DNA of 64,000 bases, from the NCBI GenBank assembly GCA_951799425.1, contig OX637392.1, positions 59,001,093-59,065,092 of the forward strand, read 5' to 3'. Made by a program: the position numbers and the translations under genes. This document shows positions 1-27,608 of this stretch, piece after piece. Numbering within the stretch: the stretch's first letter is position 1; each line of letters opens with the position of its first letter. This stretch comes from Ilex aquifolium (Eukaryota > Streptophyta > Magnoliopsida > Aquifoliales > Aquifoliaceae). Under the pieces are notes generated by a model. The model ran no database searches, was not told the origin of the DNA, and saw nothing but the letters and a program-made list of their open reading frames with translations.

Positions 1-1527
1 AAACATGCTTGTGCCTTGAAGGCCCCTTTCAAAAATGCATCTACAGATTTAGAATATGATGTCGTTGACATGTGAGCAAGAAAGCAGCCTCGAATGTAGG
101 ATAAAGCCCAAGATGTCCGCAGGGAGAAGACTAAAGCAATGTGTTTATCTGAATTAAGTCCAAATTGGGAAACCATCTGATTCCATCGGAATTCAAAATC
201 CTCCCTATTCTCCAAATGATATAATGCTTCAAACTCAGATTTGAATTCTGCAAACCTCGGTCCAAGTGGAAGAGAAAACCAGCAGGGCATTTTTGGCAGA
301 ATACTCCATATAGAAACGACATGTTTAGTGTTTGGTAATTCACTTCTTATAGCATCTATAAGCCCAGGGTCAAGATCAGATATAATTGTTTGCGGACATC
401 TTCCCTTCATAAAATGCAGAAAAGCCTACACCAATGAATACAATAAGCAAATAACATTACGAGAATAAATTGAAAACATTTATGTACTGATCATATAAGT
501 TTTAAACCTGTAAAGCCCATGCAAAGGAACGAGGTGTTTCATCCTGCAACAGAGCACAACCAAAGAAGAGGATTTTGCCATTGTTGTCAATGCCAAGCCA
601 TGCTCCGAAAAGCATACCATAGGTGATCGAACGATATGTTGTGTCGAAATAAACTACATCACCAAACATGTTGTATGCTTGAATAGTGTCTCCATATGAC
701 CAAGCAATGTTCTCAATTTTATCATTCTCATCCACAGTAACATCATAAACAAAGCATGCATCCGTCTCTTTCGCAGCCCTACAGGCCTCAAGAAGATCTA
801 TTGTATCGTTTTCTCTTTTCTCAGTCAGTATAGCATCATTTTCTTGAACAACTTTCTTACGGTTTTGAACAAAGTTCCTGACATCCCTTTCAAGAAAGGG
901 CAACTGTCCACCTTGTATTCCCTTTTCCAACTCAAGCACCTTAACTATACGATGTATGGGAAAACCAGCCTTGGAAAGCAACAGAATGCGCTCTTGATCA
1001 GCCTCATGAATTTTGCGGTACGCAGGAAGGAGCCGCACTTGGTCATCTTCCAGGAGTTCATGATTGTGCACATTACTGAATTGTACAACAAACCATTGAG
1101 AAACACCATCAATAACCTCCTTTGACAAATACATTTTCGCATCACATCCACACCTTACCGACTTCCTATCCCTATGGTGCTCCCCAGTAGGCTTTTTTCT
1201 TGTTGGTGCAAAACCAGAACGGTAACAAACAAAGTCTCGTTTATAAATACCCAATTGTGGGCTCAACCTTGACCGCTCTTTCCTGATTGAAAACCCATTC
1301 TTTCTAGCAAAATTGGCATAATATTCAAATGCATCATCGTCACTTTTGAATACCATTCCCACATAAGGGGCAACCATAGCGTCTGCTGATGCCAAATCAT
1401 TTTTCATCAATTGACATCCTATATTTGTCTCTTCCACCTCTCCTTCATAGGTAACAAAACATTTCCAATCCCCACATGGGCATTGTTGGCGCCGCATCCA
1501 TACATTTTTTGACGGTAGTGAGACCAT
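1..1527 (-). CDS. FRS10: FAR1-RELATED SEQUENCE 10-like protein, N-terminal part
   Basis: Partial gene running off the left edge. Exon 1 is 508-1527 and exon 2 is 425-1 (partial); the 82-bp intron 426-507 has GT-AG ends and joins WALQ to AFLHFMKG in frame. The start at 1527 is chosen because MVSLPSKNVW followed by RRQQCPCGDWKC is the usual FRS10 opening; the frame stays open upstream to 1614 without family similarity. Residues about 54-155 form the FAR1 DNA-binding domain (WRKY-GCM1 type zinc finger: CYRSGF, CGCDAK, VHNHEL). After LLPAYRKI a MULE-transposase core begins, with DTTYRS carrying the expected first Asp. The SWIM finger would lie outside the window. FRS proteins are nuclear transcription factors domesticated from Mutator-like transposases (established). 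No frameshift or stop is seen in the visible 480 residues. The FRS10 assignment rests on recalled family similarity. Confidence 0.9.
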
Positions 1528-1992
1528 TGTTGAATAACCCCACTCTATAAAAGTGTATAGGAGTGCATAAATACTATGGATTTCACTGTTCTTGAGTAAC
1601 CCAGAAGCTGGCAATAGACAACCCTACAATAGGACATTCAATGAAGCATTGAAGTGAGATGTGTTGTTCACTTGGATACAGTACATATCATGTGTAAAGA
1701 CCAACTTTTTATGTTAATCTTCTAAATGGGTACCATTGTACCGAGGATAATGTTTGGGTCTCAACTGTCAAGTTGAACGCGATACATGTACTGGAAAACC
1801 TACAATGAATAATTCAATTTTGGATGCTGTAGTTCATTGAAGTATAATATAGAGTACCTATTTAACTGTATAATTTTTCAGTCATATTCGAAATAGGTTC
1901 TTCAATTCTCATTTGCATATGTGAGAAAAGGGTACTAGTAATGATCGGCAGGGAAAGAGAAAGAAAATCAGTGGAACATTAAGAGATTTGCG
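1528..1992. other. 5' flank of the FRS10-like gene
   Basis: Upstream DNA and probable 5' UTR/promoter of the minus-strand FRS10-like gene. It is moderately AT-rich. No coding potential, RNA gene or clear TATA box was found. Confidence 0.4.
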
Positions 1993-4087: not shown

Positions 4088-4545
4088 TGAATTCACTAAT
4101 GCTCCGTTTGGTACGATAGAAAAATAGAAGGATGAAAAGTTGGAAAGATGGAAAGTGAGAGGAATAGATAAAATATCATATTTGGTAAGGAATGAATGTA
4201 GGAAGGATGTAAAAGTGGACGGATTAATTTTCCTTCCAGCTCACTAAAATCAATCCCTCCAAAATTAGGCAGAAAATGAAAGAAAATGATACTCATGTTA
4301 GGTCAAAATATATTATTTATTTTTTTAACCTTCAACTAATTACTTATTTACATTAAACACCTAAACCTAACATCCTATCATTTAAAAATTAAAACACCTA
4401 AACTAAATTCCTATCAGTTAAACACGTAAAAATCCAAATCGCAGTGGAGTGAAAATCCAGAAATCAATGGGATTCGTAGAGCGAAAATCTGACGTTAATC
4501 TTTTTCGTCGATTTTTATTTTTTAAATAAAATTAAAAATGGATAT

Positions 4546-5241
4546 TGATGGTTCCTCGGAAATCAATCTCCCAGGCCCGAGTTGATTAGGCTCTTCTTGA
4601 ATTTTATAAGATGGGTTTCAGAGAAATTGAAGTTAAGCGATGATAGGCAAGCAAATGTGAGTGGTTCACCCTAGCCAAAAGACTTGGGCTACGTCCACTG
4701 TAATGGAGGCTCTTGATCCTGGGTTGTGTATATTGATTTCAACTGATTACAAGAAAAGTATTGGCTCTGGGCCACAAACGATGCTCTCTATTGAGGCTGT
4801 CCTAGGGATCTTGGCGAAAATACCAGCTAGAAGACGGGGAAGAAGGCCCAGGAATTCGATCCCCTTTCCTCCTTTTACTGTCCTATTTATATGGTGTCTG
4901 CTCCTAGGGTTTTGTTGTCCCTGCTCTTCCTTTTTTTGATCTTGTGGGGACCGTTCGTCCTTTCTCTGCGAGCCACTCTGACCGCCGGCGATTCTGTGCC
5001 CACGATCGCCTGGGTTCGTTCGACACCATCCCTCTGTTTTTGCAGGGAGTAACTCTGAGAAATCAGAGCCGATTTTCCTTGTCCTTGGAGCGCGTGGTGC
5101 AACAGGCTCCAACTTGGGCCGTGGGCTGAGGATCGAACTTGGACCGGTTGGGGTCATTCCCTTTTGGGCTTCAGAGTCTTTATTCAGCCTTTGGGCTCGG
5201 TCGTTGTGGCAGCCTAGCCCAAAAAAAACCTACCCTCATCA
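4546..5241 (-). repeat. LTR, 3' copy of the Tat element
   Basis: 696 bp, TG...CA. Carries a minus-strand TATA box (tatttata on plus, 4884-4891). Same length as the partner at 18441-19136 with three substitutions. Reading frames inside it are shadows. Confidence 0.95.
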
Positions 5242-5260
5242 GTTGCCCCCCAGCCCCTGG
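5242..5260 (-). other. Polypurine tract next to the 3' LTR
   Basis: On the minus strand this reads CCAGGGGCTGGGGGGCAAC, purine-rich and abutting the LTR start, the position of plus-strand priming in LTR elements. Confidence 0.7.
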
Positions 5261-5327: not shown

Positions 5328-5514
5328 ATACGTGGCGGAATGTGTGGTCAGGCGGCTTTACGCGGTTCAGGGCTGATTCGGTAATTTGCCGGCTGTGATG
5401 GGATGTTTTTTTTTTTTTTTACATGTGTCACCATGGGGTGACTCCAGTCGGTACGGTTCTGGAGACGCGTCCTGCCGCCTCATTTTTCCTGACATTGAAT
5501 GCCTTGTATAAAAG
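5328..5514 (+). promoter_or_regulatory. Promoter-like region of antisense gene A
   Basis: TATAAAAG at 5507-5514 lies 435 bp before the ATG of gene A. ACGT-core boxes resembling G-box/ABRE sites precede it (atacgtggc at 5328-5336). A GTACGT donor at about 5676 and pyrimidine tracts before the ATG allow a 5' UTR intron, which I cannot prove. Direction is opposite to gag-pol. Confidence 0.5.
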
Positions 5515-5941: not shown

Positions 5942-8130
5942 ATGGGGAAATGGGTCGTTTCCTCCTCTGAATCGGATTCTGAGGACCAAGTGGGTGAAGA
6001 GGTCGAGGCAAGTACCTCAGGTTCTCATAGTGGCAGTTCCGCTGATAGGGCCGTGTCTGGGTCTGCCCTTGGGGTTTCTGCCTCCGGGTCCATCCTTATA
6101 GAAGAAGCTCGTCCTTTATCGTCATTCCCTCATGTTTCTTTCGCTGCGCCAAAAACTAAGAAATCCAAACCGGCTCCTCCTCCAACTCCTAGAAAAAGGG
6201 TTCGTCGGGATCAAGCCGACCTAACTTGCTGTGCGGCGTCGACTCCCAGTTGTCTTAGTGATGAGGATTTAGGCGAATTGAGGCGGGAATATTGTTTTCC
6301 CGACTCCGTTCTTTTGCACTCCCTTGACGTGCATGAGAGGTGCAATTCTTCTATCCCCGGCCTGGTTTATTTCTACGAGTCGGCTTTCCGCGCTGGTTTG
6401 CGGTTCCCTGTTCATCCTTTCATCCGGATTGTCCTTGCTTTTTATAACATATACCCTGCCCGGCTTTCTCCAAACGGATGGGGTCTCCTGATCGGATTTC
6501 TTGTCCATTGGTTGAAGAGTGGGAACGACTCTCAGCCCTCCGTTAATGAATTTGCCTCCCTTTTTCAACTTAAGTCCTCCCCTTCTGCTGGTTTCCTTTA
6601 TTTTTCGAAAAGGGTCAGGGCGAGGAATCTGATCACCGGGCTTCCTTCTTCCAACAAAGGGTGGAAACCCAAGTTCTTCTTTGTTAGAGGTGATTCCTGG
6701 GAGCTTTCCGAGAAACCAGGGGACGTCCCTCTCATTCCCAGGTCTTGGGGGGCCCCAAGGAATATAAGTAAGGCCCTTCAATTTAGCTGCATCTTTTTCT
6801 TTCCCTATTCTTCTTTTTCTGACTTAACTTCTGATTTGCAGGTTACCGTCCTGTCCTTGGGGTCGAGGAAGCGGCAAGGGTTGCTAGAGCCGAGGATTCG
6901 GGGTCGCAGTCCTTCTTCGATTTGGTGACGGATGAGAATTTAGCCCTCTACGAACTCGGGCCTCCAGTTGAGCAACCCTCAGTGCCTTCGTCACCCCCTG
7001 CTCCCCCAACTGCCCCTATGAAGAAAGATTTGATAATGGCGGTATTCACAGATGCCGAGAAGTCGAGGAAGAAAAGGAAGGTGGTGAAGGATTCCCAGCC
7101 GTTATCTACTGGTGCGTCGGTATCCGACCCCCCACCTGCTACTTCTGAGCAGAAGGAAGAGATCCTCCTTCCCTGCGAGGATGCGCCTCCCCCCCTGCTC
7201 CCTGTTGAGGCTCCTAGGGGCAAATCATCGACCGAGGGAGGTTCAGACAAAGGACGCGAGGTTCCAGCAGTTCTTCCTCACTCTGCCCCTCAGGAAGGTG
7301 GGAAGATGGGCCTCGCTCGACCTCCGTCTAAAGATCAAGGGGATGGTTTCCTGCGTGACCCTAAGGTCGCAGTTGCTGTCTTGTCCGACCTTGTTTCAAC
7401 TTCAGATCCCAGGGCAGCCATGCGGGTTCCTTTCGACAAGAAGGTCGATCGCGCTATCCGGGGCATGGCAGAGGTACTTTCTATCCTTGTCTTTTCTCTT
7501 CTCTTGTATTTCTTTATACCGAGGTCTTCAGGGATTTTTTGTTTGACCCCTTTTTCTTCTCAGACGCTCGCTTGCGTAAAGATGCTAGGATTCCACTACA
7601 AGGAGGAGCTTTCGAAGGCAAAGGAGTCCAGGGCCGTCCTGTTAGTGAGCAAGGAGGCTGCCGAGGAGAAGGTGAAGATTTTGACCTCAGAGGCCGCTGA
7701 ATTGAAGAGGATTAACGACGAGATGGATGCTCGCCTTCAGGATTTTGTCAAGGTCATGGATTCCAAGGAGAACAAACTCAAGGCCGCCGAGGCTGACCTG
7801 GTCGCCAAGGATTCCGAGCTGTTGTCTTTGCGGTCTCGTGTTTCGCAGCTCGAGAAAGACTGCGCCTCCGGCTTTGTGAAGGGTTTTCTAAACCTTAAGG
7901 ATCAACTTGAGGAGGCTCATCCTGACCTGGACTTGGACCCTTTCGTACCAGTGCTGGACTCCGAGGAGGCCGCCGTGGTGGCTGAGGAGGTCGGAACCTC
8001 TGATCTCCCTGAGGGTGTGGCTCCTGATGCGGAGAAGGTGCCTGGACCTGTGGTGGAAGCGGCGGAGGGACCATGTGTGCCAGCAGGGGCATCTGGTGAG
8101 GGGGCAGGTGATGAAGAGATTGCTTTTTGA
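5942..8130 (+). CDS. Antisense gene A of the Tat element (Transposase_28-like domain + coiled coil)
   Basis: Predicted exons 5942-6767, 6842-7473 and 7564-8130 give about 674 residues; introns 6768-6841 (phase 1, GTAAGG...TTTGCAG) and 7474-7563 (phase 0) restore one frame. The ATG at 5942 opens MGKWVVSSSESDSEDQ; the frame upstream has no other ATG. An acidic Ser-rich N-terminus is followed by basic KTKKSKPAPPPTPRKRVRR (possible nuclear signal). The conserved domain reads GLRFPVHPFIRIVL, ARLSPNGW and KFFFVRGDSWEL, the pattern of Pfam 'putative gypsy type transposon'. A second basic patch (SRKKRK), a Pro-rich linker and a long heptad coiled coil follow, then GFLNLKDQ and PDLDLDPF. It lies opposite to gag-pol. 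Function unknown; single antisense ORFs are documented in Tat elements. Unspliced, the frame breaks at 6768. Confidence 0.75.
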
Positions 8131-8540
8131 GGTCGATTTGAGGCCTTCCTGCTGTTTCCAACTTCCTTGTGACTCTTCAAGTAGTTTCTCTGTGGAATGC
8201 TCAATTGTAACTTCTTTAAATGCTAAAATGAGAACTCTTGTAGCTTTCTCTTTTTTATGATTGTTGCGTGATGCCTTGCTACAACTTCTTTGACTTGCGG
8301 TTGCGTTGTATTTTCCTTAGGCGCTGACTTCTGCTTTTTTACTTGTGGTCGAGCTTCTTTGAATCGAGCCGACCTTCACACTTTCCCCTTGGGTCTCTTG
8401 AACTTCTTTAGGGCTATTTTGGTCCTTTCTCGCTGTTTTACTCGTAGTGGTAGTCCGACGGTTTTGTTCGTTTGAGAACGTGCGCCGTCAGAGGGCTTAG
8501 TGATCCCTCGATCATGGCGTCCAAAAAGCCCCCACGACGC

Positions 8541-8627
8541 CACGTGTCCCCTCCATTAATGGCGAGGGACGTGCATTAACTGCCTTCGGCGACAGTGACA
8601 AGGCTTGTCCTGTGGCACCTATAAATA
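8541..8627 (+). promoter_or_regulatory. Promoter-like region of antisense gene B
   Basis: G-box CACGTG at 8541-8546 and TATAAATA at 8620-8627, 117 bp before the ATG at 8744, suit a plant Pol II core promoter driving gene B. Confidence 0.55.
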
Positions 8628-8743
8628 GGCCTTCAGGGAATGATTGCCTTTTACTGAGCGAACAAGTAGTTCTTAGCTTTCTGCTGCTATACGCTTTTCT
8701 TTCCCTGTTGCTCCTAAGAGATCTCTTTTCGATTCTTGCACTT

Positions 8744-10729
8744 ATGGCTACTCCTTCTTCTCCATTCGATGTTATGGAGCGAGTTTTCGGCTGCGTTGAA
8801 GCCAGCGAAATTGATGGGGACGAGGCTCAGCTCCTCGCTAGGCGCTTCAACTTTCCCCCTGGCGTGATCGTGCGCTCTGCGGGCTTGCGCAGATTCCACA
8901 GCTCGATTACTGGTGAAGCTTGCTTCTTCGAGGGCCCCTTCTCGCTAGGGCTTCGATTTCCCCTGCCTAGTTTGATACGAGAGGTCCTTCACTTTTTCAG
9001 TTTCTGTCCCGCCATGCTCCTCCCATCTGGCTGGGCGGTGTTATTGACCTTCATTGCGGCGTGGGGAAGGATGTTTCCTCAAGCTAGGGCTAACTTGAGA
9101 GAGTTTCTTCACTTTTTTTGCCCCGAGGAGGTATCCGAGTTTTACCACTTCGTCCCCAGGCGAGGGGGAGAAATTCCCATCCGGGATCTCCCGCCGAACC
9201 CTGAGGGGTGGATAAGGAGATATTTCTTCATCTCTGGAGATGGCTGGGAGTTTGATTCCCAATTTTCGGGGTCCGTCAGAGTTCCTACCGCCTGGGGGAG
9301 CCGCAGGAATTTAAGTAAGCTTTTTACCTTAATTTTTGTGGATGCTTGTCCTTGTGCTTTAACTGTGTCACCGGTTCCTAATGCAGGAGAGCTTCCGCCC
9401 CTTGACTCTTCAGAGCTGGCCCGAGTAGACCAAGCGCGTGCTCGCCTCCCCTTTTCTTATGTTAAGCTGATGCACCCCGGGGCCCCCTCGGGGTCAGGTG
9501 ATGGCACATAAACAATGTCTTTTGTTTCTCTGTTTCTTCTTTTCGGATCCTTGCTAAGTTTTTGATCTTGTTTATGTAGTTCCTTCCTACTTGGTGACTC
9601 AGCGCCACATGATCATGGAGCGCGTAGATGAGAGGAGGCGGGATAGGGCCGTAGGACCTCCGACGAAGAGGACGAGGTTGGAAGAGGGTGACCCTTCTGG
9701 TGGGGTCCCCCTATCGGCCGCCGAGGCTCCTGTTGTAGCAGCCGAGGCCCCTGCTCCTGTATCCAGCGCTCCTATTCCTTCATCCGAGGCCCCGAGGTTG
9801 ACATCGGAGTTGGTTACCAGTGCAGCCACTGCGGGTACCGTGACGATTGATCCCGTTGGAGGGCTTGTTCAGCGAGGCACTGCTTTATCTGTTGCAGCTG
9901 GTTCCAGCTCGGCTCGTGCCCCCCAGGCCTCTATTGCTGACCCCGAGGCCGGCCTACTTCGGGACATGAGTTTGAGCAGCCGGGCTTTGATGGAGTTGAT
10001 TCCCCGAGCTGACCTTCGCCGCTCTGTGGATCTTCCCTTTCAAGTCCGAAGCCGTGATGCTCTTCATGCCCTGCTCGAGGTATACCTTGGTGTTTTTTCC
10101 TCTATTTCAAACTTCTCGGTATCTTACATTGTCCCTTATATTTTCAGTCGGCGACGCATGTCTGCGCTCTTGGGAGGGAAATCTTTATGCTGAGGAGCGA
10201 TGTTCAGAGGAGAAGTTCCGAGGTTCTTGACGCCCGTCGGCAAGGCACCGAGCTGTTGGACTGGGGCTTGTCCACTGAGAGGGAATTGGAACAGGTCCTC
10301 GAACAGCGGGCTCATACTTTCAGACAACTGATTGCCAGTACCTCTGCTGAGGTTTCGCTAAGGGACGAACTAGCTTGTTTAAAGGAAGAGCGGGAGGCTG
10401 AGAAGGAGGAACTGCTGAACGCGGCTGTCGCTCGTACTCTTATGGGAGATGAGCTGAAAGAGTCCCGGGCTGAGGCTGCCGAGCTGAATAGGTCTTTAGC
10501 TGCCGAACGCCAGCTTGTAGAGGATCAACGAAAAGAGCTTGAGAAGGCGAGGCTGGAGGCAGCCAGGGCTTTTGTCGATGGGTTCTTTAATTTTGCCGAC
10601 CAGGCGATAGAGAGATATCCCGACCTAGACCTTGAGCAATTTCAGCCAAGGTTTGATGCTTCTTCAAGTGGCGGGGCTCCTGATGTTACTCCTGCTTCCG
10701 ACGCTACTCTTCCTGCAGATCGGTCTTGA
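8744..10729 (+). CDS. Antisense gene B of the Tat element (paralogue of gene A)
   Basis: Predicted exons 8744-9314, 9387-9497, 9580-10079 and 10148-10729 give about 587 residues. Introns: 9315-9386 (phase 1, same position as gene A intron 1), 9498-9579 (phase 1, absent from A) and 10080-10147 (phase 0, matching A intron 2). The start MATPSSPFDV lies 117 bp downstream of the TATA box. The domain core has CFFEGPFSLGLRFPLP, LPSGW and RRYFFISGDGWEF, clearly related to A and C but strongly diverged. Then come an Ala/Pro-rich linker with KRTR, a long Glu/Arg/Leu coiled coil, and the closing GFFNFADQ and PDLDLEQF shared with A. All reading frames rejoin exactly across the introns, which supports a functional spliced gene rather than chance ORFs. 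Role unknown. Confidence 0.75.
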
Positions 10730-10975
10730 CCACCAGGGTTTTCATAGCTGATTTTTTTTTTTTTTTTTGACGCAATTTTGTAGTGGAACTTCCCCTTTGG
10801 AATGGAAAAATTTTTGTGGTGCTGTACTTGTGTTGTGCTGTACTAGGTGCTGTACTCGTTGCTGCTTACTGTGTGTTGCTGTACTCCCCTGCCCCCTCTA
10901 CTCCGAAGAGGCCTTGGCCTGTTGGGAGTAGTGTCACTGCTTGGAATCTGGGCTTCCTTACATTGGATCTGCTGC

Positions 10976-10978
<3 letters not shown>

Positions 10979-11009
<31 letters not shown>
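10979..11009. repeat. (TA)n microsatellite
   Basis: About 14 TA repeats bounded by gtg and cac, between antisense genes B and C. Likely slippage-prone; it may form a cruciform. Confidence 0.9.
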
Positions 11010-11011
<2 letters not shown>

Positions 11012-11132
11012 TTTTTGCAATACACGATGTAGATTTAAGGAAGTTCCTGGGTGGTTTACCAACCTTGTCGTAAGTTGAGCCAGCATTCAATGCTATTTTG
11101 ATTGCGAGATTCCAACAGTCACCCTTGGGTAT

Positions 11133-11140
11133 TATTTATA
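11133..11140 (+). promoter_or_regulatory. TATA-like box of antisense gene C
   Basis: TATTTATA at 11133-11140, about 78 bp before the ATG at 11218. Weaker match than those of genes A and B. Confidence 0.35.
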
Positions 11141-11217
11141 CCCGTTTGCCTCATTGCTTTTCATCAAGCCCCTCCTTTTTTTCTTTAACTCTTCGTATCC
11201 TGCTTGAACTCGAGGCT

Positions 11218-12109
11218 ATGGATTCTTCTAAAGTCTTTAAGCATCGAGCCCGTGAATCGCTAAAGGGCGATTGGTGTTCTATCTTTCTTCTTCCCTCCCG
11301 GATGACAGCGGCGGATGCTGTCGCGATGAAGAGTCGATACGACCTTCCAGCGGATCTGAGGGTGAGGGCTCCCACTCTTGACGAACCTTGCAGTATGTCC
11401 ATTCCAGGGGAGGTTTCCTTTTTCGAGGGCGCATTTGAGTACGGCTTTCGACTCCCTCTTCATCCAGATTTCGCTCGGATTCTCTCACACCATGGTCTGT
11501 GTCCTTCTCGCCTTTCCCCGGAGGGGTGGGCTACTATGGTTGGCTTTTTCATTTTCTGGCGTATGCAAGGTTTTGAGACATTTCCTTCTGTTTTGGAGTT
11601 TTTCTACTTCATTGACCTCTCTTTCGACTTTCCCCCGTTCTTCAGTTCTCTCTCTTTTAAGTGGTATTTCCATCCTCCATTGGTTGCCGATATTCCCTCT
11701 TCCCCCGAGGGATGGACTCAGCGCTTCTTTTTTGTATCTGGGGACTCGTGGGAATCCGCTGTGGGGGAGGACCAGCATGTTTGGGTCCCTCGCTCCTGGA
11801 CGAGCTTTCGGGAGAGAGGTAAACATTTCATCCTTTCAAGGCTACCTGACCTTTTGTTCACAGCTAATTTTACTGAACTTGTTTGTGCTGATGTTGTACT
11901 GTGCAGGTATTCCCGCTCTGACTCCAAACGAGGCTTTCCGTGTCCGGATGGTCGAGAGGGCTTCCCCTCGTCCTTACTCTGCTCTCGTAACCCCTCAGAA
12001 CCTTGTCCGTTATGGGATAGGGGGGGTTCAACCAGGATCCAGCGCACGCCCTCCTTTGCTAACGAGCCAGAGGGAGTTGTCTTGGAAGACCCCGAGGTGG
12101 AGGTGCTGA
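11218..12109 (+). pseudogene. Antisense gene C of the Tat element (third paralogue, tail shifted)
   Basis: Starts MDSSKVFKHRARES at 11218. The domain core (FFEGAFEYGFRLPLHP, RLSPEGWATMVGFF, RFFFVSGDSWES) matches A and B. Intron 11819-11906 (phase 1, GTAAAC...GTGCAG) sits where intron 1 of A and B sits and leads into GIPALTPNEAF and SALVTPQNLVRYGIG, ending at a stop at 12107-12109 (267 residues). A coiled coil (EVLKRKLAEVERERDALKEE) is encoded immediately downstream in another frame to 12267. I infer a frameshift between about 12000 and 12070, perhaps in the seven-G run at 12020-12026. It lacks the PDLDL ending of A and B. Alternatively, retaining the intron gives one 350-residue frame through the coiled coil. 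Confidence 0.6.
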
Positions 12110-12417
12110 AGCGGAAGTTGGCAGAGGTGGAGAGAGAGAGAGATGCTCTGAAGGAGGAGAATGCCAGGCTCAAGGCGGATGCCGATGGGGGGGAGAAAGT
12201 AGAGAAGGAATTTCTGAAGGAAGGGAAAGCGGAGGAGGTCTCGGTGGGGGAGGGTGGCCAGGACTAGGGGCCCTGTTTCTTTTTTATAACTTCTATGTAC
12301 CAGTTGGTGGTTGCTCCTTTTGAGCTGTTGACTTCTATCCATAATGCAATGAAATCCCTGTCTTTCGTCTTCCATTTATTTTCTTTTTGCTAAGAATGTG
12401 GTTGTCTGTTGAATGTG

Positions 12418-12747
12418 GTCCCTGAGCTTACAAGGTCTTAGACATAAAACCTGTAGTTCCTGAGCTTACGAGCTCTTGAGCTTACGAGCTCTTAGACTGA
12501 AAAGTCTGTAGTTCCTGAGCTTACGAGCTCTTAGACTGAGAAGTCTGTAGTTCCTGAGCTTACGAGCTCTTGAGCTTACGAGCTCTTAGACTGAGAAGTC
12601 TGTAGTTCCTGAGCTTACAAGCTCTTAGACTGAAAAGTCTGTAGTTCCTGAGCTTACGAGCTCTTAGACTGAAAAGTCTGTAGTTCCTGAGCTTACGAGC
12701 TCTTGAGCTTACGAGCTCTTAGACTGAAAAGTCTGTAGTTTCTGAGC
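12418..12747. repeat. Tandem hairpin repeat between gag-pol and the antisense genes
   Basis: Seven units of 39 bp (short) or 55 bp (long, with an extra 16-bp gagcttacgagctctt), after a diverged first unit in the order L, S, L, S, S, L. Each has ttcctgagcttacgagctct followed by agactgaaaagtct, a 5-bp stem with a GAAA loop. The array lies exactly where the antisense genes (ending 12109-12267) and gag-pol (ending 12843) converge. Confidence 0.9.
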
Positions 12748-12842: not shown

Positions 12843-15800
12843 CTATTGGTAGTAACGCTTCAGGTGGTCTGCGTTCCATGAGTGGTGTAGGTCTCTGCCC
12901 TCCTCCGTTTGCAGCTCGTAATTTCCAGGTCGGACAATCTTCTTTACCACGTATGGTCCTTCCCAGTTTGGTCCCAACTTGCCATGGGCGGGGTCCTTCC
13001 TGGCTGGGAGCAATTTCTTCAATACTAGGTCTCCTGGCTTAAAGCCTCTGCTCCTTACTCACTTGTTATAGTATCTTGCTGTACTCCTCTGGTAAGAGGA
13101 TATTCGTTGTAGGGCCTCGTCTCTTTTTTCGTCCAGGAGGTCGAGGTTGACCAGTAATGACCTTTCGTTTTGTGTTGGGTTGAACAGTTCGGTTCTCGCA
13201 GTGAAAACTCCTATTTCAACAGGAGCCATGGCCTCCGTTCCGTATGCTAGGCTGAAAGGCGTTTCCCTGGTTGCAGTCCGAGTGGTTGTCCGGTATGCCC
13301 ATAACACCGCGGGGAGGTAGTCTACCCATTGGGACTTGGATGCCTCGAGCCTGGTTTTGAGCGCCAGTTTGATAGTCCGGATGGTCACCTCTGCTTGCCC
13401 GTTAGACTGCGGGTGGGCTGGTGTTGAGAAGAAGTTTTTGATTCCCAATCCGCTACAGAAGTCTGTGAACATCGGATTGTCGAACTACTTCCCATTATCG
13501 GAGACCACTGCTCTGGGGACGCCGAAGCGGCAAATTATAGACTTCCAGACGAAGTTTTTGACTTTTTGCGCTGTGATCTTTGCCAGGGGTTCGGCTTCTG
13601 CCCACTTGGTGAAGTAGTCGACTGCGACCACAAGGAATTTGCATTGTCCAACCCCTATTGGTAGGGGTCCTAAGATGTCCAACCCCCACTGTTGGAAGGG
13701 CCAAGGACTGACCACCGGGGTGAGGAGTTCAGGCGGGCAGTGTGGCAGATTCCCATGAACCTGGCAAGCTTTGCATCTCTTCACTATCTCTTTGGCGTCT
13801 TTGGACATTGTTGGCCAGAAGTAGCCTTGCCGGAGGGCCTTGCTGGCTAATGTCTTGGCCCCGATGTGATTGCCGCACATGCCTTCGTGGATTTCCCTTA
13901 GGATGTAGTTTGCCTCCGTTCCTGTCACACATTTCATTAAGGGAAAGGAAAAACCTCTTTTATATAGGTTACCTTGGATCAGTGTGAACCTCGCCGCCCT
14001 GGTTCTAAGTTTTGATGCGCCCTTCGGGTCATCTGGCAATACTCCGTTTTGCAAGAAAGATATGATGGAGTCCATCCATGAAGCCTCTTCTTCTTCTTCG
14101 ACTGGCATAGCCTGAGTTTCTGCGGCTGGCTCGTCGTCAAGTTGTATGCTGGGTCGTGTTAGGACTTCGATGGGTGTTCGCCCTGGTAGGTCTTGACCGC
14201 CAATAGTGGCCAGTTTGGCCAAGGCGTCTGCCCGCTGATTAGCTTCTCGCGGAATTTGGATTAGCTCGGTCGAGATGAACTTCCTCAGTAGCCTTTGGAC
14301 CTCTGTTAGGTATAAGGCCATCTTTTCGTCTCGGGCGGCGTATTCTTCTTCGACTTGCCTGACTACCAGTTGCGAGTCGCTATACACCACGATCTGTTGA
14401 GCTTCCATCGAAAGGGCCAGGTTCAAACCGGCTATGAGAGCTTCGTACTCGGCCTCGTTGTTGGATGCCTGAAAGTCAAACCTCAAGGCATACTCTAGGT
14501 CATACCCTTCTGGTGATGTCAAGATGAGTCCGGCTCCGCTTCCCTGCACATTCGAAGCCCCATCTACGAACAGTTTCCAGGTTGGAACGTCGGGGACACA
14601 GTCTTGGTTTTCCTCGTTTTCTTCGGGTGGGGAGGTGAACTCGGCGAGAAAATCTGCCAGGACTTGTCCTTTGATGGCGGTTCTGGGCTTGAATTTGATA
14701 TCAAACTCGCTAAGCTCCATCGCCCACTTTATCAATCTACCCGAGGCTTCAGGTTTGTGCAGGACCTGCCTCATCGGTTGGTCCGTTGGGACTTCGATGG
14801 TGTGCGCCTGAAAATATGGTCTCAACCTCCGAGCGGCGACGAGCAGGGCTAGCACGAGCTTTTCCATCTTCGGGTATCTTTCCTCGGCGCCTCGGAGGGC
14901 CTTACTGCAGAAGTAGACTGGCAGTTGGACCCGTTCTTTGTCTCTGACCAGCGCGGCGCTGACCGAGAAGTCCGAAACCGCCAAGTAAAGCGTCAGCACT
15001 TCTCCCTCTTGGGGGCTTACTAGCACGGGCGTGGATACCAGGTAGGCCTTTAGGGCTTGGAAAGCCTCTTCGCACTTTTCGTCCCACTGAAAGGCTGCCT
15101 TAAGGACCTTGAAGAACGGTTGGCATTTATCGCTGGAGCGCGATACAAAGCGGTTGAGCGCCGCTATCCTCCCGGTTAGGCGCTGGATTTCTCTTGTGGT
15201 GGTAGGGGGCTTCATTTCGAGGACTGCTTTAACCTTTTCTGGGTTTGCCTCAATGCCCCGGCCGTTGACTATGAAGCCTAAGAACTTTCCAGCTGACACC
15301 CCGAAGGCGCACTTTGCGGGGTTTAGCTTCATTCGGTACCTCCTCATAATCTCGAATGACTCCCTGAGGTGCTGAATGTGGGTCTCGGCCTTGAGCGACT
15401 TTACCAGCATATCATCTATATACACCTCCATGGTCGAGCCTAGCTTCTCTTTGAACATCCGGTTAACCAACCTCTGGTAGGTGGCTCCCGCGTTCTTCAG
15501 TCCGAACGGCATCACTTGGTAGCAAAAGATGCCCTGCTCTGTGACGAACGAGGTCTTTTCTTGATCGTTTGGGTCCATCCGGATTTGGTTGTATCCTGAG
15601 AAGGCGTCCATGAAGCTCAGGAGCTCATGCCCGGCCGTCGCGTCAACTATGAGGTCGATCCGTGGCAACGGGAAACTGTCCTTTGGGCACGCTCGATTGA
15701 GATCGGTAAAATCGATGCAGAGTCGCCACTTGCCGTTTACTTTCTTTACCAGAACGACGTTAGCTAACCAGGTCGGGTATTCGACCTCTCTGATGGCTTT

Positions 15801-18383
15801 GGCGCGCGAAAGCTTGGCTACCTCTTCATTGATCGCCTTTTGCCGATCTGGCGCGAAGCTTCTCCTCTTCTGCCTTACCGGCTTGCAGTTAGGATCTACA
15901 CTGAGTCGGTGTACAATCACGGCGGGGTCTATTCCTTCCATGTCTTCTTGTTTCCAGGCGAAGACGTCGGTGTTTTCCTTTAGGAAGGAGATGAGCTTTT
16001 CCTTGAGGACTGGTAACAACATGGAGCCTACAAAGACTACGCGCTCCGGGTCCTCACCCAGCTGCACCGGCTCCAACTGTTCCGAGGGGGAAGGTCGGGC
16101 TTCCATATCATCCCTCATATCCAAATCCTCCAGCTGGACCGACTCTACCTCTTTCTGCCTCATGGATGCCACGTAACATTCCCTGGCGAGGCGTTGGTTC
16201 CCCCGTACTATGCCGACTCCACTCTCAGTTGGAAATTTCATCACCAAATGGTATGCAGAGGGTACCGCCTTAATGGAGTTGAGGGATGGCCTCCCCAGCA
16301 AGACGTTGTAGGCAGAGGGTGCGTCTACCACCAGGAACCGGGCGGTGGTGGTGACCTGGCAGGGCGGATCACCTACGGTGAGTACAAGCGGAATAGAACC
16401 GACCGACAAGACTCTTTCTCCCGAAAATCCTAGGAGATGAGTTTTCACAGGCTCTAGTCTCGATCTCTCTATTCCGAGCTTCTCGAAGGCGGCTAAGAAA
16501 ATGATGTCTGCCGAGCTCCCATTGTCGACAAGCACCCGGTGTATGATTTTATTTGCTATGATTGCTTTTATAACCAGAGGGTCGTCATGGGGGTGCTGGC
16601 ATTCTTCTAAATCCGCATCTGAAAAGGTGATCTCCATGTCTCGGCGGGGCATTTTGTTGACGGTCTGGACTGTGAGGAAGTCTTCCGACCGGGCCCTTCG
16701 GGCATGGGCTCTCCGAGCCGAGCTTGTTTCGCCTCCGCCAGCGAAACCCCCAGAGATGACTCGGATCTCTCCGATGGCTTGTTGGTGTAGTGGCTGTTCG
16801 TCGGTATCTCGGGCTTCTCGCCCTTGATTGTTCTGAGCTCTCTGTTCCCCTGCGATGTAGCGGCGCAGATGGCCTCTCTGAATTAGGTATTCGATCTCCT
16901 TCTTCAACTGGATGCAGTCGTTTGTTTCGTGGCCTGTGTCTTTGTGATAATCGCAGTATTTGGTGGCATCCCGCCTGCTTGGATCAGACTTCATCCGGGG
17001 AGGCCACCGGACTGACCTCTCGTTCTGCACTTCGTGAAGGACCTGGACTATCGAGGTGACGAGGGGTGGGAGCCGTGCTGGCACATACCGCTGTTGCAGC
17101 TCCTGGGGGGGCGGTCCTAGGCGATCTCGAACGTTCCCCCTCCTCATGGGAGAAGGCTCTCTCCCCCTTCTTGGGGAGCGGTCTCTCCTCGGAGATCGGT
17201 CTCGCCTTTTCTCCTTTTTCGGACTGTGATCCCTTTTCTTCTTCTCTCCGTCTATGATCGCCGTGCTTCCCTTCAGGCGTAGAGCCTCCTCGCCGTTTAT
17301 GTACTTCTCGGCTTTCGCCAATACCTCGGCCATGGTGGCTTGAGGATTCTTTGCGATCGAAAAGAGGAGATCCTTGGACTGAACCCCGAGTCCGGACATG
17401 AAGGTGGTCAGCGCGAACTTATCGTCCACGCTCTCTACCTTCAAACATTCTTGGTTGAAGCGCTGTACGTAACTCCGGAGGGATTCGTTGGGTCCCTGCC
17501 TGACGCTCAGTAAATGGTAGGACGACTTCCTATAAGTCCTTGCCCCGATGAAGTGGGACACGAACTGTATGGAAAGTTCTCGGAAGGATGAGATCGACGC
17601 CGGTCGTATCTGGTTAAACCAGGCTATAGCCGATCCTTTAAGGGTGATCGCGAAAGCCCGGCAGCGGATGGGGTCTGGATATCCTTGGAGTTCCATTTGA
17701 TTTTTGTACAAGTTTAGGTGATCGACGGGGTCTCTGGTGCCGTCGAACGCCTCTATCGAAGGGGTCCGAAACTTCTGGGGGAGGGGGAAGTGGAGGACTT
17801 CTGGGGTGAATGGTGATTCCGTTTGCTGAACCAAGGCGTCCATGGTGTCGGGGGTTCGCCCCTTAACCACTTTCTTCATATTGCCTAGCTCCCGCTGGAG
17901 CTCACGGATTTCTTGCTCCCAGGCATGGTCATTCGCGTTCTGGGGGTAGGGCCTATCCTCTTGGCAGGCGGCCCTAGCCCTACTGTGAGCTTCATCGTCG
18001 AGTTCTTCGGGAAGTCTTCTCCGGTGGTTTTCGCCAGAATGGCTACGCTCATGGAGCTCAGTCACCCCGTTGGGCGGGGCTTGGCGCTCTTGGTGTGGGG
18101 GAGCGACATCGTGTTCGTCTTGGGGGGGAGGAGGCTCTTGTCGAGCCGGGGGAAATCGGGGAAGGGGGAGCTGATGAGACTGTATCCAATCCATCAACTC
18201 CTGGTTCTGTTTCATCAGCTGTATTGTAGTCCTATGGTAGGTTTCCAGTTCGTTTAGCGGAGGGATGTTCGCCGCTGGGGGATGACCCTCAACGTCCTCC
18301 ATGTGCGCCGGAAAGATCTCCGGCAAGTTTTGGTGGCCTTGGGGATTGGCAGGAGCTTTACTCATATTCCGAGTAGAGACCAT
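12843..18383 (-). CDS. gag-pol polyprotein of the Tat element, two in-frame stops
   Basis: One frame of about 1846 codons. Start MVSTRNMSK at 18383, 38 bp past the primer-binding site; the frame stays open into the LTR. Order from the start: Gag (FDGTRDPVDHLN near 213-224), an Arg/Ser-rich linker, a C-H-H-C knuckle (CDYHKDTGHETNDC, ~477), protease LVDNGSS (~618-624), reverse transcriptase with YIDD (~988-991), RNase H, a second archaeal-type RNase H (FVDGAS, ~1272), integrase HHCC (EIHEGMCGNH, CKACQ) and catalytic Asp residues in GLDILGP and VVSDNG. A TAG at 13487-13485 interrupts integrase just after that Asp; TGA at 13047-13045 is a second stop in the C-terminal domain; the natural end is TAG at 12845-12843. 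Both look like C-to-T changes of CAG and CGA codons. The element is probably not autonomous as it stands. Confidence 0.9.
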
Positions 18384-18420
18384 CAAGTATATAAGATTCT
18401 CAGGAGAACGATGAAAACCG

Positions 18421-18438
18421 TTCCCACAGACGGCGCCA
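18421..18438 (-). other. Primer-binding site of the Tat element
   Basis: Two bases inside the 5' LTR the minus strand reads TGGCGCCGTCTGTGGGAA, starting with TGG as expected for pairing with a tRNA 3' CCA and widespread in plant Ty3/gypsy elements. I do not assign the tRNA. Confidence 0.8.
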
Positions 18439-18440
18439 AC

Positions 18441-19136
18441 TGATGGTTCCTCGGAAATCAATCTCCCAGGCCCGAGTTGATTAGGCTCTTCTTGAATTTT
18501 ATAAGATGGGTTTCAGAGAAATTGAAGTTAAGCGATGATAGGCAAGCAAATGTGAGTGGTTCACCCTAGCCAAAAGACTTGGGCTACGTCCACTGTAATG
18601 GAGGCTCTTGCTCCTGGGTTGTGTATATTGATTTCAACTGATTACAAGAAAAGTATTGGCTCTGGGCCACAAACGATGCTCTCTATTGAGGCTGTCCTAG
18701 GGATCTTGGCGAAAATACCAGCTAGAAGACGGGGAAGAAGGCCCAGGAATTCGATCCCCTTTCCTCCTTTTACTGTCCTATTTATATGGTGTCTGCTCCT
18801 AGGGTTTTGTTGTCCCTGCTCTTCCTTTTTTTGATCTTGTGGGGACCGTTCGTCCTTTCTCTGCGAGCCACTCTGACCGCCGGCGATTCTGTGCCCACGA
18901 TCGCCTGGGTTCGTTCGACACCATCCCTCTGTTTTTGCAGGGAGTAACTCTGAGAAATCAGAGCCGGTTTTCCTTGTCCTTGGAGCGCGTGGTGCAACAG
19001 GCTCCAACTTGGGCCGTGGGCTGAGGATCGAACTTGGACCGGTTGGGGTCATTCCCTTTTGGGCTTCGGAGTCTTTATTCAGCCTTTGGGCTCGGTCGTT
19101 GTGGCAGCCTAGCCCAAAAAAAACCTACCCTCATCA
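18441..19136 (-). repeat. LTR, 5' copy of the Tat element
   Basis: 696 bp, TG...CA. The promoter LTR for gag-pol on the minus strand. Three substitutions relative to 4546-5241, no length difference. Confidence 0.95.
18779..18786 (-). promoter_or_regulatory. TATA box of the 5' LTR
   Basis: TATAAATA on the minus strand within CATATAAATAGG. It would start the genomic RNA near 18750, leaving an R-U5 of about 310 nt before the primer-binding site. Confidence 0.65.
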
Positions 19137-19450
19137 GATATATTTTTATGTTATTTGTGTTTGTTTTAACACATGGTGTGTATAGCATAGTGACATGGTG
19201 TATAATATGTACACTAATCTCATAAAATGATAAACTAGTAAATTACATATGTATATTGTTTACTCTCTTTCCATTTTTTCATCTATACCATACACAAAAA
19301 AAATAATCATTTTTATTTTCCATTCATCCAACCAAATACAAAGGAAGGAAAGTGTATCACTCATACTTTCTTTCATTGAAGGATAGAAAATGTATCCTTG
19401 CTACTTTCTATTCCACATATTTTTCATCTTTCCTACCAAATAGAGCATAA

Positions 19451-20972: not shown

Positions 20973-22239
20973 TTACATGATTGTGCATGCGTATGGATTT
21001 TCGTCACTAAAACAATCACCACGACTCCCACAATAACCCCTACCATAACCCCCACCATAACCCCCATAACTATCATAACATGGTCCCGGTGGTGGTGGTG
21101 GTGGAGGCACTCCGTACCCATGGTAACATGGTCCCCCAACTCGACCTTCATAACATGACCCACAACATATCCCAATTGGATATGCAAATACCGGTTCAGG
21201 CATAGGTGGTGGAGGTGCTATTGGTGGCGGGTTAGGTTTGGGAACTTCTTTAGGCTTCTCCGTGGGCTTTTCAGGAGGGTTGGCAGGTATTACAATTGGT
21301 TTGGGAACTTCTTTAGGTTTCTCAGGCACTTTAGGCTTCTCTGGCTCTTTGGGCTTCTCGGGCACTTTGGGTTTCTCTGGCTCTTTGGGCTTCTCGGGCA
21401 CTTTGGGTTTCTCTGGCTCTTTGGGCTTCTCGGGTGGTTTGGGCTTCTCAGGCTCTTTGGGCTTTTCAGGTGGTTTGGGCTTTGGTGGCAGTAAGATGTC
21501 GATGCTCTTGATGGTCTTCCCACCTTTGCAACACAATTTGTCACGAATCTTCTCTGGGCTGCAGCATACCACCTTGATCGTCACCGTGTTGTGCTTCTCA
21601 TCATATGCTTGGTCTCTAATTTCTCTCATCACAAAAATTTCACATCACAAAAAAAGAAAAAAAAAAAGTCAGTTCTTATCCAAACATAAAGCCACAATGC
21701 ACTGTTCATAAAATGACAAGACAAACATACTAAACCGAACCTAAACTGAATAATTTTTGAAAATTATTAGAAAAATCAAGACCAACAGTGTAATTGATTC
21801 CAATTAGTATTTTCCAAAAAAACCAATGAGTGGATATGCCCCAGGCCACAACTGAATAACAACAACATGCAGAAAAAAAAAAAAAAAGATAAGAGTGGAG
21901 ACTGACGAGGGAATTTGCAGAGAATTTTCTTGATCTTCTTGCGGCAGTGAGGGCACTGGAGATCAACCTTGAGCACCATTGTTGTAACCTGTTTTGTTGC
22001 ATCAAAACAAGAACGCAGATAGGAAGAAGAACAATCCAATCCAACACAAGTGTTTGCAGAAAAGAGAATTCAAAGGAAAAAATAACAGGAAGGAAGCATG
22101 CAAAATTTAGAGGGGGAAATCTAATCTAAATGAAGAACATACAACCAAGCCAACAAAAAAGAAAAACAACCAGAAACAAGGGAGGAAAATTAATTGATAG
22201 AGGGAATCTGATGAGATTTGCATATACCTTCTCAGCCAT
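20973..22239 (-). CDS. Proline-rich heavy-metal-associated isoprenylated plant protein (HIPP, Pi21-like architecture)
   Basis: Three exons: 22239-22228 (MAEK), 21988-21907 and 21622-20973, giving 247 residues with phases 0 and 1 closing exactly. The HMA domain (VTTMVLKVDLQCPHCRKK...) has a CPHC metal-binding motif at about residues 15-18 and continues through IRDQAYDEKHNTVTIKVV. Then follow about ten Lys/Glu/Pro repeats (EKPKEPEKPKVP type), a Gly/Tyr/Cys-rich region (PPPPPPPGPCYDSYGGYGGG) and a C-terminal SDENPYACTIM whose last four residues CTIM are a CaaX farnesylation box. HIPPs bind metals and attach to membranes or nuclei through the lipid (family knowledge). One HMA plus a proline-rich tail is the arrangement of rice Pi21. 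The repeat antisense strand is open too, but is a shadow. Confidence 0.92.
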
Positions 22240-25062: not shown

Positions 25063-25354
25063 TGTGAGACCTAATCATGCATTTCATGCATATTAGCATA
25101 ATTTTGTGGGCTAAATTGTAATTATGTGAAATTATTAAATGGTTAATTAAATTAAATCTTCCATAGCCATGATGTGTGTGAGCATGCATTGGGTATGTGG
25201 ATCCCGTTATTGATGTATTAGTGAGACCTATTTATAGAATTTCATGTGTGAAAATCACTTAAAAACTTGAGGGGAGGCAGGTATAATTACTCAATTTAAT
25301 GACTTACCTTTACATGTGTTGGATTAAAAAAAGGGGTGAGTTTTCTTAAGTGTG

Positions 25355-25433
<79 letters not shown>

Positions 25434-25496
25434 GTGTGTATGTGTGTGTATGTGTCTTAAGGTGTAGAAGTGTGTGTGTGTGGTTAATATACAAAA

Positions 25497-25539
<43 letters not shown>

Positions 25540-27601
25540 TTAGTGTGTCTGGTTCTTTGCTGAACCGAGAATGAGGGAGAGTAAAGAGAAAAAAAATATA
25601 TGTGTGTGTGTGTGTCCATTTGAACCGTGAGCAAGGAAGGTATGTTAGACTCAATTTAAGCATGAGTTGTGATTAGTTTTAGTATATATGTATTTGTATA
25701 TGTGTGGGCTGTTTTAACATGTTTTAAATGAGTGGCTATTTTAATTTAATTCATTGACTGTTTTGGTTAATTTTAAGGGGTTGTTTTACTTTAATTTCAA
25801 AACATATTTTTGTGAGTTTAAATTAAGTATATTAAACATAAATTAGTGGGTTGTTTTGTGTTAAATTAATGGGCTATTTTATTCTAAGTTCAAAACAGAT
25901 TTTATTAAGGGTATTAAACAAAATTTAGGGGCTGTTAAGAATGGGTGTTAAATGGGTATTCAACCGAGTGTGCGAAAAGTGTGGAAATAACCATTTGAGA
26001 TATTCGATAAGCATTTAGTGGGCTAGGTTGAAACCGAAATTATGGGAGTGAAATGGATGGTTTAAGGTTCAATTAGGGGTTGTTTTACATTAATTAAACG
26101 TGTATGTGAATTTAAGTGTAGAGGTCTTAAAAGAAAAGAGTGATAGAGGTTGAAAATTGGTGCCGGTAATGCCGAAACCTTGATTTCTAAATGTTATTAT
26201 CACATGTGTAAATTTTAATCCGAATGACCTACAATTTTGCATGCTGCATTTTTAAATAATGTTTGATGTGATAATATGACTTTCGAATGCAAATGAATAT
26301 GATATCCGGTACGAAACGTATGGAATGTCGGAAGTGCAGTTTTAGGATTCGGGGTCGAAATGTATGAAAATGGGCCCCTGGTCAATGTGTTTGACCAACG
26401 TAATCATAATTGTGATTAATGTGAGTGCTTTTGGAGATTTGGGGAGGAAATATGATCCCTAGAACAAAAGTGCTAATGTGTGAGCGGATAGTGCGATAAC
26501 CGGAGTTACCGGGACACTTTGGGGTGCATCATTTTGCATGCATTAGTGCATGATTAACTATTAAATGTGATAAACGTAAAGATATTGTAATTAAAAAAAT
26601 GTTAGGTGGAACGGGGTGAGACAGTCGGTGTTGGAACAGATACGGTAACACCGAAAGGATCCATCAATAGGACCGAAGGGTCGTAGATCTGTATATTTGA
26701 GGTGGGTGTATATCTTTATATTTTTTGAAAATGCTATTATAAGATGATAGTAAATGATATAATTTAATAGCATTTCGTCAGGATTATGTGTTATGTGCTT
26801 CTGTGATTGAATGATGTTTTGTACTGTGTATTGTGTATTGTGGAATGTGGCACACTGTTTGAGACAGGAGCGTCGATGTCTGATCACTGGGCATGCAGTG
26901 GTGTGCTAACATTGTGGTGTTCCCGGGAGGTTCGAAAAACACGGATCCATGTGGGATCGATTACCCGATGAGGGGTAGTGTGGAGGTGATGTGGCTTGTG
27001 AATTCTCTGGAATTGGATTGATGTTGTTGTTTGATACATGTATCTACGTAGTATCTACCTACTTGAGTGTATTACTATCATTTTCATTTCATATACAACA
27101 TGTATACTCACTGAGCGCGTGGTTTAGCTCACACCCCTATAGTTTATCCTTTTCAGGTGTTGTAAAAGAAAGTTGCAGACCAGTCCACTGTTCAGTTGAT
27201 TGAGTTTTGTACAACGTTAGTGTGATATCACTTAGGTTGAGTGTTTGTATGACTAATTGTTGGGTTGTGTATTATATTTACGAGAGAATATTATGGCAGG
27301 TTAATAGTATATATTTGTATATAGACTCAACAAGCATACTTTGTGATGTATGCTATGTGGGTGTGGGATTTTGTATATGTCTATAACCTAGGAAACAAAC
27401 AATTGGTACAGGTGTTTTATATATGGTACGGGTTATGAGACAGGTTTTACCATCATACTTAATGACTAAGGTGATGGGTGGTGTTGTTGCACCTGTGGGA
27501 TTATTTAATGTTTGATTAGTCTAGATTATACATATATGTAAACAGGTGTATCAAAAACCTAGTCACGTCTCATCCTTGGGAGACCGGGATGGGGGATGAC
27601 A
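25063..27601 (+). repeat. 5' LTR of the Tekay-type element
   Basis: 2539 bp. Starts TGTGAGACC and ends ATGACA, followed by the primer-binding site after seven bases. Contains the long (GT)n array. ORFs within are shadows. Confidence 0.9.
25358..25544. repeat. (GT)n microsatellites in the 5' LTR
   Basis: Two long GT tracts, about 25358-25434 and 25499-25540, with interrupted GT-rich DNA between. The 3' LTR has a shorter version that includes a (GA)n tract, so the microsatellite has changed since insertion. Confidence 0.95.
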
Positions 27602-27608
27602 ATTTAGT

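What the first reader, a model, noticed from the sequence alone, without database searches (positions are those of the whole stretch)
5942..12109. Three tandem antisense genes in one Tat retrotransposon
Seen directly: between pol and the 3' LTR, on the strand opposite gag-pol, are three diverged copies of a gene with the same domain core (FxFEGxFxxGxRxPLxP ... LxPxGW ... FFFxSGDSWE), a phase-1 intron at the same codon position and a TATA-like box each. Known: Tat-lineage elements often carry one antisense ORF, and Pfam has a 'putative gypsy type transposon' family of this pattern. Inference: tandem duplication followed by divergence gave one element a small gene family, perhaps with divided roles (A and B keep the coiled coil and PDLDL tail; C has lost it).
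Basis: partly seen in the sequence, partly recalled or inferred. Interest (0 to 1): 0.9.

Follow-up and report, generated by a model that had tools for sequence, protein, structure and literature searches.

The report
Retrotransposon with three antisense spliced genes
A jumping element in a plant genome carries, on the strand opposite to its replication genes, three related genes with predicted introns that natural selection has kept working across many copies, so the element seems to own a small gene family whose job is still unknown.

Summary
The window contains a young 14.6-kb Ty3/Tat-type element (LTRs 4546-5241 and 18441-19136, 99.57% identical; TSD GATAT). Between pol and the 3' LTR, antisense to gag-pol, lie three paralogous genes (33-35% identical) with a phase-1 intron at the same site. 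They belong to the Transposase_28 (TRP28, PF04195) family; gene B alone scores below Pfam's cut-off. The layout is a family trait: of 150 scored gene-B matches in the host genome, 94 have A upstream and C downstream, 135 at least one. Copies differ with dN/dS 0.21 (A), 0.19 (B), 0.10 (C), and 0.09-0.13 over the TRP28 domain: all three proteins have been kept by purifying selection. That C lost its coiled coil is true of this copy only; in 16 of 17 other copies the coil is in frame. Antisense TRP28 ORFs are published for Retand elements; I found no report of three, or of introns in them, in the texts seen. Function is inferred: nuclear, oligomeric regulators of the element. The predicted domain fold matched nothing convincing in PDB or viral libraries.

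The parts
4546..5241 (-). 3' LTR of the element (gag-pol sense is the minus strand)
   Evidence: 99.57% identical over 697 bases to 18441-19137; TG..CA ends and TSD GATAT at 4541-4545 and 19137-19141
18441..19136 (-). 5' LTR
   Evidence: minus-strand sequence next to it reads TTGGCGCCGTCTGTGGGAA, taken as primer site (tRNA type recalled, not tested)
12843..18512 (-). gag-pol; ORF 13485-18512 has gag, RT, RNase H, second RNase H-like domain and start of integrase; interrupted by in-frame stops at the ORF boundaries 13485 and 13059; end at about 12843 read by eye
5507..5512 (+). TATA-like site before gene A
5942..8130 (+). Gene A: exons 5942-6767, 6842-7473, 7564-8130; TRP28 domain, basic clusters, coiled-coil-like tail, PDLDL motif; 674 aa
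   Evidence: dN/dS 0.214 between copies
6768..6841 (+). Gene A intron 1 (phase 1)
   Evidence: GT..AG in 20 of 21 copies; similarity to P0045 stops at the donor
7474..7563 (+). Gene A intron 2 (phase 0)
   Evidence: GT..AG in 21 of 21 copies
8620..8625 (+). TATA-like site before gene B
8744..10729 (+). Gene B: exons 8744-9314, 9387-9497, 9580-10079, 10148-10729; TRP28-like domain (below Pfam cut-off), basic cluster, coiled-coil-like tail, PDLDL motif; 587 aa
   Evidence: dN/dS 0.185 between copies
9315..9386 (+). Gene B intron 1 (phase 1, same aligned site as in A and C)
   Evidence: GT..AG in 20 of 21 copies
9498..9579 (+). Gene B intron 2 (no counterpart in A)
   Evidence: GT..AG in 20 of 21 copies
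10080..10147 (+). Gene B intron 3 (phase 0, as last intron of A)
   Evidence: GT..AG in 18 of 21 copies
11133..11140 (+). TATA-like site before gene C
11218..12109 (+). Gene C as open in this copy: exons 11218-11818, 11907-12109; TRP28 domain; 267 aa
   Evidence: dN/dS 0.099 between copies
11819..11906 (+). Gene C intron 1 (phase 1)
   Evidence: GT..AG in 17 of 20 copies
12043..12267 (+). Coiled-coil-like code of gene C, out of frame with exon 2 in this copy, in frame in 16 of 17 other copies
12414..12747 (.). Tandem repeat array (units of 39, 94 and 133 bases reported) between gene C and pol

Best explanation
The element belongs to a large Tat/Retand-type Ty3 family that carries three paralogous TRP28 genes, antisense to gag-pol between pol and the 3' LTR. 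SHOWN: paralogy, an intron site in common, the three-gene layout recurring across the genome, and purifying selection on all three. INFERRED: each gene has its own promoter and is transcribed by Pol II in antisense, spliced and translated; because the genomic RNA is the complementary strand, the introns are not recognised during the replication cycle and are copied intact. INFERRED: the proteins (basic NLS-like clusters in A and B, a conserved TRP28 domain, coiled-coil tails) go to the nucleus as homo- or hetero-oligomers and act in trans on element DNA or chromatin, as regulators of expression or of escape from silencing, with partly separate tasks.
For: Paralogy 33-35% and PF04195 hits; shared intron site with splice dinucleotides kept in 20, 21, 20, 20 and 18 of 21 and 17 of 20 copies; similarity of A to P0045 stops at the donor, 78 of 111 residues before and 3 of 17 after. 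Of 150 scored B matches 94 have both A upstream and C downstream; 16 of 20 fetched stretches have A, B and C in order. dN/dS for pairs with dS above 0.15: A 0.214, B 0.185, C 0.099; domains 0.088, 0.126, 0.092; other forward frames 1.15-2.39. Shared variants in close copies have pN/pS 0.44, 0.17, 0.12 against 0.80, 0.59, 0.55 for singletons. Published: Grande gene23 product is nuclear and has its own promoter (review PMC7264820); DNA binding of TRP28 is a published prediction (PMC11963269).
Against: No RNA, localisation, binding or interaction data. A has dN/dS 0.79-2.28 between the window and its eight closest copies (few changes). One reverse frame that shares third positions also gives low ratios, 0.29, 0.27 and 0.15, though higher than the coding frame each time. 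Heptad periodicity is weak (p 0.08, 0.03, 0.08). No promoter word of 7 or 8 bases is shared by all three genes. Many copies are damaged: exon chains open in 9 of 20 (A), 15 of 18 (B), 13 of 18 (C). The domain model matched no DNA-binding fold convincingly.
Confidence: 0.55

Rival explanations
1. Same three selected genes, but the proteins serve the particle or integration (nuclear import of the pre-integration complex, targeting to chromatin) rather than regulation of expression.
For: Retroelement accessory proteins with such roles are discussed in PMC7264820; the basic clusters fit nuclear import as well as regulation; the domain has no recognisable fold that points to transcription.
Against: Antisense expression from separate promoters would uncouple them from gag-pol; Grande gene23 is reported nuclear and broadly transcribed. 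Neither is decisive.
Confidence: 0.25
2. The proteins mainly act against host silencing in the nucleus or cytoplasm (suppressors), each paralogue against a different host factor.
For: Paralogue number and divergence with retained domain constraint; A changes fast in protein between the closest copies.
Against: No direct evidence; the excess in A rests on few changes and may be drift after insertion (singleton pN/pS 0.80).
Confidence: 0.12
3. The antisense transcripts act as RNA (dsRNA source) and the ORFs are incidental.
For: Antisense transcription can feed silencing, as discussed in PMC7264820.
Against: Purifying selection in the coding frame of all three genes, strongest on the domain; ORF length far above shuffles.
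Confidence: 0.03
4. B and C are decaying duplicates of A without function.
For: Many copies carry damage, including C in the window.
Against: C and B have lower dN/dS than A between subfamilies (0.099 and 0.185 against 0.214); damage is mainly in single copies.
Confidence: 0.02
5. Origin rival: the three genes came together by recombination between Retand subfamilies rather than by tandem duplication within one element.
For: A separated from B and C before its split from P0045 (A+B+C alone rejected, p-AU 0.0036); L040 is mosaic, A and B nearer to the window (p-distance 0.053, 0.038), C nearer to L043 (0.076 against 0.176); no residual similarity between the spacers at E 1e-8.
Against: Shared intron site and, for A and B, shared last intron fit duplication; an old tandem duplication followed by exchange fits all the data too. 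A+B+C+P0045 as one group is only weakly supported (81/33).
Confidence: 0.35

Closest known systems
Retand-lineage LTR retrotransposons with antisense TRP28 (PF04195) ORFs (Vicient 2025, PMC11963269; parts 1-3 of 5 and passages read)
   Same: Antisense PF04195 gene between pol and 3' LTR; long POL-3'LTR region; tandem array next to pol; young copies
   Different: Three TRP28 genes instead of the reported 57 TRP28 ORFs among 104 antisense ORFs in 63 clusters; predicted introns ('intron' occurs 0 times in that text); internal region 13.2 kb and POL-3'LTR about 7.6 kb, against maxima of 12,869 and 6,566 bp there. That survey counted unspliced ORFs of 600 bp or more, so gene pieces like those of B could have been missed
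Maize Grande with gene23 (via review PMC7264820; original paper not held)
   Same: Antisense gene in the 3' region, own promoter, nuclear product
   Different: One gene reported
HBZ, antisense gene of HTLV-1 (named in PMC11963269; splicing and leucine zipper recalled)
   Same: Works alike at most: nuclear protein from the antisense strand near the 3' LTR
   Different: No homology tested or claimed; one gene; animal retrovirus
Ogre elements with the plant mobile domain (PF10536; passages of PMC6317226)
   Same: Tat-type relatives with extra ORFs
   Different: No PF10536 hit here

Membership tests
PF04195 Transposase_28 (TRP28) | Profile match above the curated cut-off | tested here: met
   A 38.8 and C 34.5 bits against 26.2
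PF04195 Transposase_28 (TRP28) | The same for gene B | tested here: not met
   18.8 bits, E 0.0019; B is placed by its 33-34% identity to A and C and the shared intron
Ty3/gypsy Tat (OTA) lineage | Two RNase H domains after RT | tested here: met
   RT_RNaseH at 1174-1270 and RVT_3 at 1317-1435 of the pol ORF
Retand lineage | RT phylogeny | not tested
   No reference RT set was placed on a tree; 'Retand' here rests on the features below
Retand lineage | Long POL-3'LTR region with antisense TRP28 gene, often a tandem array | tested here: met
   5242 to about 12842; features as in PMC11963269
LTR retrotransposon | Paired LTRs, 5-bp TSD, gag-pol | tested here: met
Antisense spliced nuclear genes such as HBZ (analogy only) | Spliced antisense transcript and nuclear product | not testable with these tools
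   Introns and basic clusters are predictions

The most novel reading that the evidence does not exclude
A retrotransposon family maintains its own three-member, intron-bearing nuclear gene family on the antisense strand, the one place where introns survive retrotransposition. Its members combine through coiled coils and a DNA- or chromatin-binding domain of undescribed fold to run an element-encoded regulatory circuit. Paralogues like B, below Pfam's cut-off, may make multi-gene TRP28 arrays common and overlooked in Retand elements.
Probability: 0.35. Interest if true: 0.82.

Novelty: new variant of a known kind. Interest (0 to 1): 0.64.

Why it matters
Antisense TRP28 genes occur in 97% of the Retand clusters of the 2025 survey (PMC11963269), yet their function is unknown. 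Here one family keeps three of them, with similar strong constraint on the domain of each (dN/dS 0.09-0.13), so the proteins and not only the antisense RNA matter. At least 150 matches to each gene in one genome, conserved predicted introns and copy-to-copy differences form a natural experiment that makes the function of TRP28 testable. The antisense position also offers a simple reason why a retroelement can keep intron-bearing genes.

Tried and rejected
Considered and rejected: chance ORFs; antisense RNA alone and neutral duplicates; loss of the coiled coil from C as a family trait; a promoter word shared by all three genes (none of 7 or 8 bases); relation to the plant mobile domain (no hit for A, B, C at E up to 1, nor among 46 family members at E up to 5; HMMER filters drop most weak hits).

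Rows dropped before counts: for dN/dS L046 (A) and L032, L034, L047 (B and C), where the gene is absent, cut or displaced; with them in, summed ratios at dS above 0.15 were 0.284, 0.296 and 0.254. L047's B is partly intact (exons 1-3) and was dropped whole.
Full report
THE ELEMENT. A self-comparison of the window gives direct repeats 4546-5242 and 18441-19137, 697 bases at 99.57% identity; the LTRs proper are 4546-5241 and 18441-19136 with TG..CA ends and GATAT on both sides. gag-pol is on the minus strand: ORF 13485-18512 holds gag, RT, RNase H, a second RNase H-like domain (RVT_3) and the start of integrase. Its frame is closed at 13485 and again at 13059; the pieces beyond gave no Pfam match, and the end at about 12843 is read by eye. 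So this is a young but damaged copy. I did not place its RT on a tree; 'Retand' rests on the dual RNase H, the long POL-3'LTR region, the tandem array at 12414-12747 and TRP28.

THE THREE GENES. On the + strand the exon chains of A (674 aa), B (587 aa) and C (267 aa in this copy) have no internal stop. PF04195 is matched by A (E 1.1e-9) and C (2.5e-8), and by B only below the cut-off (0.0019). They are paralogues, 33-35% identical over 169-221 aa. Intron 1 has the same aligned site and phase 1 in all three; the last intron (phase 0) is common to A and B; B has one more. Introns are 68-90 nt and 60-66% A+T, exons 43-47%. In P0045, a relative of A from an unnamed source (about 70% identical), similarity runs up to the predicted donor and stops: 78 of 111 residues before it, 3 of 17 after.

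A FAMILY TRAIT. The window's genome (800 Mb, 103 contigs) answered three protein searches; each scored only the best 150 of 7,060 (B), 7,460 (C) and 8,137 (A) candidates, so counts are lower bounds. Of 150 B matches 121 have a scored A match 1-5 kb upstream on the same strand, 108 a C match downstream, 94 both, 135 at least one; of 150 A matches 121 have B downstream, 11 have C but no scored B, 18 neither. Shifting one list by 100 kb or more, or taking the other strand, gave 0 or 1. Of 20 stretches fetched around B matches picked to span identities, 16 hold A, B and C in order; L032, L034 and L047 have A and at least the first exon of B but no C within the stretch (for L047 the genome search lists a C match starting at its very end, 3.9 kb beyond B's start); L046 has B and C with remnants of A. 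These 20 were chosen by B, so the share does not estimate how often A or C occur alone.

SELECTION. With absent genes left out, pairs of copies with dS above 0.15 give summed dN/dS 0.214 for A (139 of 190 pairs), 0.185 for B (113 of 153) and 0.099 for C (125 of 153). TRP28 domains give 0.088, 0.126 and 0.092; the middle parts 0.308 (A) and 0.260 (B); the coiled-coil parts 0.220 and 0.186. Read in the other two forward frames the same columns give 1.15-2.39. Of the reverse frames, the one that shares third positions gives 0.29, 0.27 and 0.15, above the coding frame in each gene; the others exceed 1. Within the closest copies (9 for A, 7 for B and C) variants shared by two or more have pN/pS 0.44, 0.17 and 0.12, singletons 0.80, 0.59 and 0.55, as expected of selection in source lineages and drift after insertion. 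Against: A has dN/dS 0.79-2.28 between the window and L031-L038, on few changes; drift, relaxation or recent positive selection are all possible. The pairs are not independent, and these ratios are Nei-Gojobori estimates without a tree model. Splice dinucleotides are kept in 20, 21, 20, 20 and 18 of 21 rows and 17 of 20 (window included); several misses are copies that lack the gene. Exon chains are open and in frame in 9 of 20 (A), 15 of 18 (B) and 13 of 18 (C) rows.

GENE C CORRECTED. Coiled-coil-like code is there from about 12043 to 12267 in another frame. In 16 of 17 other copies that hold C it follows in frame with exon 2, in 81-121 open residues. So the family's C has a coiled coil and the window's copy is broken; other copies are intact here. 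The PDLDL motif of A and B is not seen in C's stretch of the window.

ORIGIN. In a tree of 31 domains A joins P0045 (100/98) and B joins C (91/88, two long branches); A, B and C as an exclusive group is rejected (p-AU 0.0036), so A parted from B and C before it parted from P0045; A, B, C and P0045 together have weak support (81/33). L040 is nearer to the window in A and B but to L043 in C, so genes move between subfamilies. Old tandem duplication and assembly by recombination both remain.

MECHANISM. Shown: anatomy, layout, copy number, selection. Inferred from how retrotransposons replicate: the genomic RNA is the complement of these genes, so their introns are not recognised and pass through reverse transcription. 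Inferred: own promoters (TATA-like sites), nuclear action (basic clusters in A and B; nuclear Grande gene23 as told in PMC7264820) and oligomers (coiled-coil-like tails; weak periodicity). The domain model (pLDDT 79.5, pTM 0.74) matched no solved or viral structure convincingly; DNA binding rests on a published prediction (PMC11963269). I take nuclear oligomeric regulators as most likely, a role in integration as next.

WHAT IS KNOWN. Seen: PMC11963269, parts 1-3 of 5 and two passage searches; PMC7264820, parts 1-2 of 3; passages of PMC6317226, PMC12786077 and PMC9289625. Not held: the Grande gene23 paper and the 2011 survey of extra ORFs. Eight library searches, whose listings I saw, turned up no report of three TRP28 genes in one element or of introns in them. 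Subscription papers, figures and supplements were not seen; figure 3 of PMC11963269 could show elements with more than one.

Noticed in passing
13059-13487 (minus strand): pol of this copy is closed by in-frame stops in the integrase part, although the LTRs are 99.57% identical.
   Followed up: partly
25063-34971: A second element: repeats 25063-27594 and 32452-34971 (89.7% identical) around RT, RNase H and integrase-zinc domains on the + strand.
   Followed up: partly
505-1623 (minus strand): FAR1 DNA-binding and MULE transposase domains: FAR1-like gene or relic.
   Followed up: partly
44497-48792 (+ strand): Oligopeptide transporter gene; PF03169 matched in the piece 47866-48789, the rest judged by eye.
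   Followed up: partly
20973-21644 (minus strand): Proline-rich protein with KPEKP-type repeats and a start that looks like a heavy-metal-associated protein by eye; no Pfam match at E 0.001.
   Followed up: no
L040 (copy at G000:C8:1469301-1476601): Mosaic copy: A and B nearer to the window, C nearer to L043.
   Followed up: partly
Gene C in L041-L043 against the window: dS of C (0.80-0.83) far exceeds that of A (0.25-0.34) and B (0.27-0.32) in the same copies: C may have a separate, deeper history.
   Followed up: no
Gene A in L031-L038 against the window: dN/dS 0.79-2.28 on few changes while B and C stay below 0.5 in the six copies where these are whole; drift or fast change of A.
   Followed up: partly
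12414-12747: Tandem array of 39-base-type units between gene C and pol, as reported for other Retand elements.
   Followed up: no
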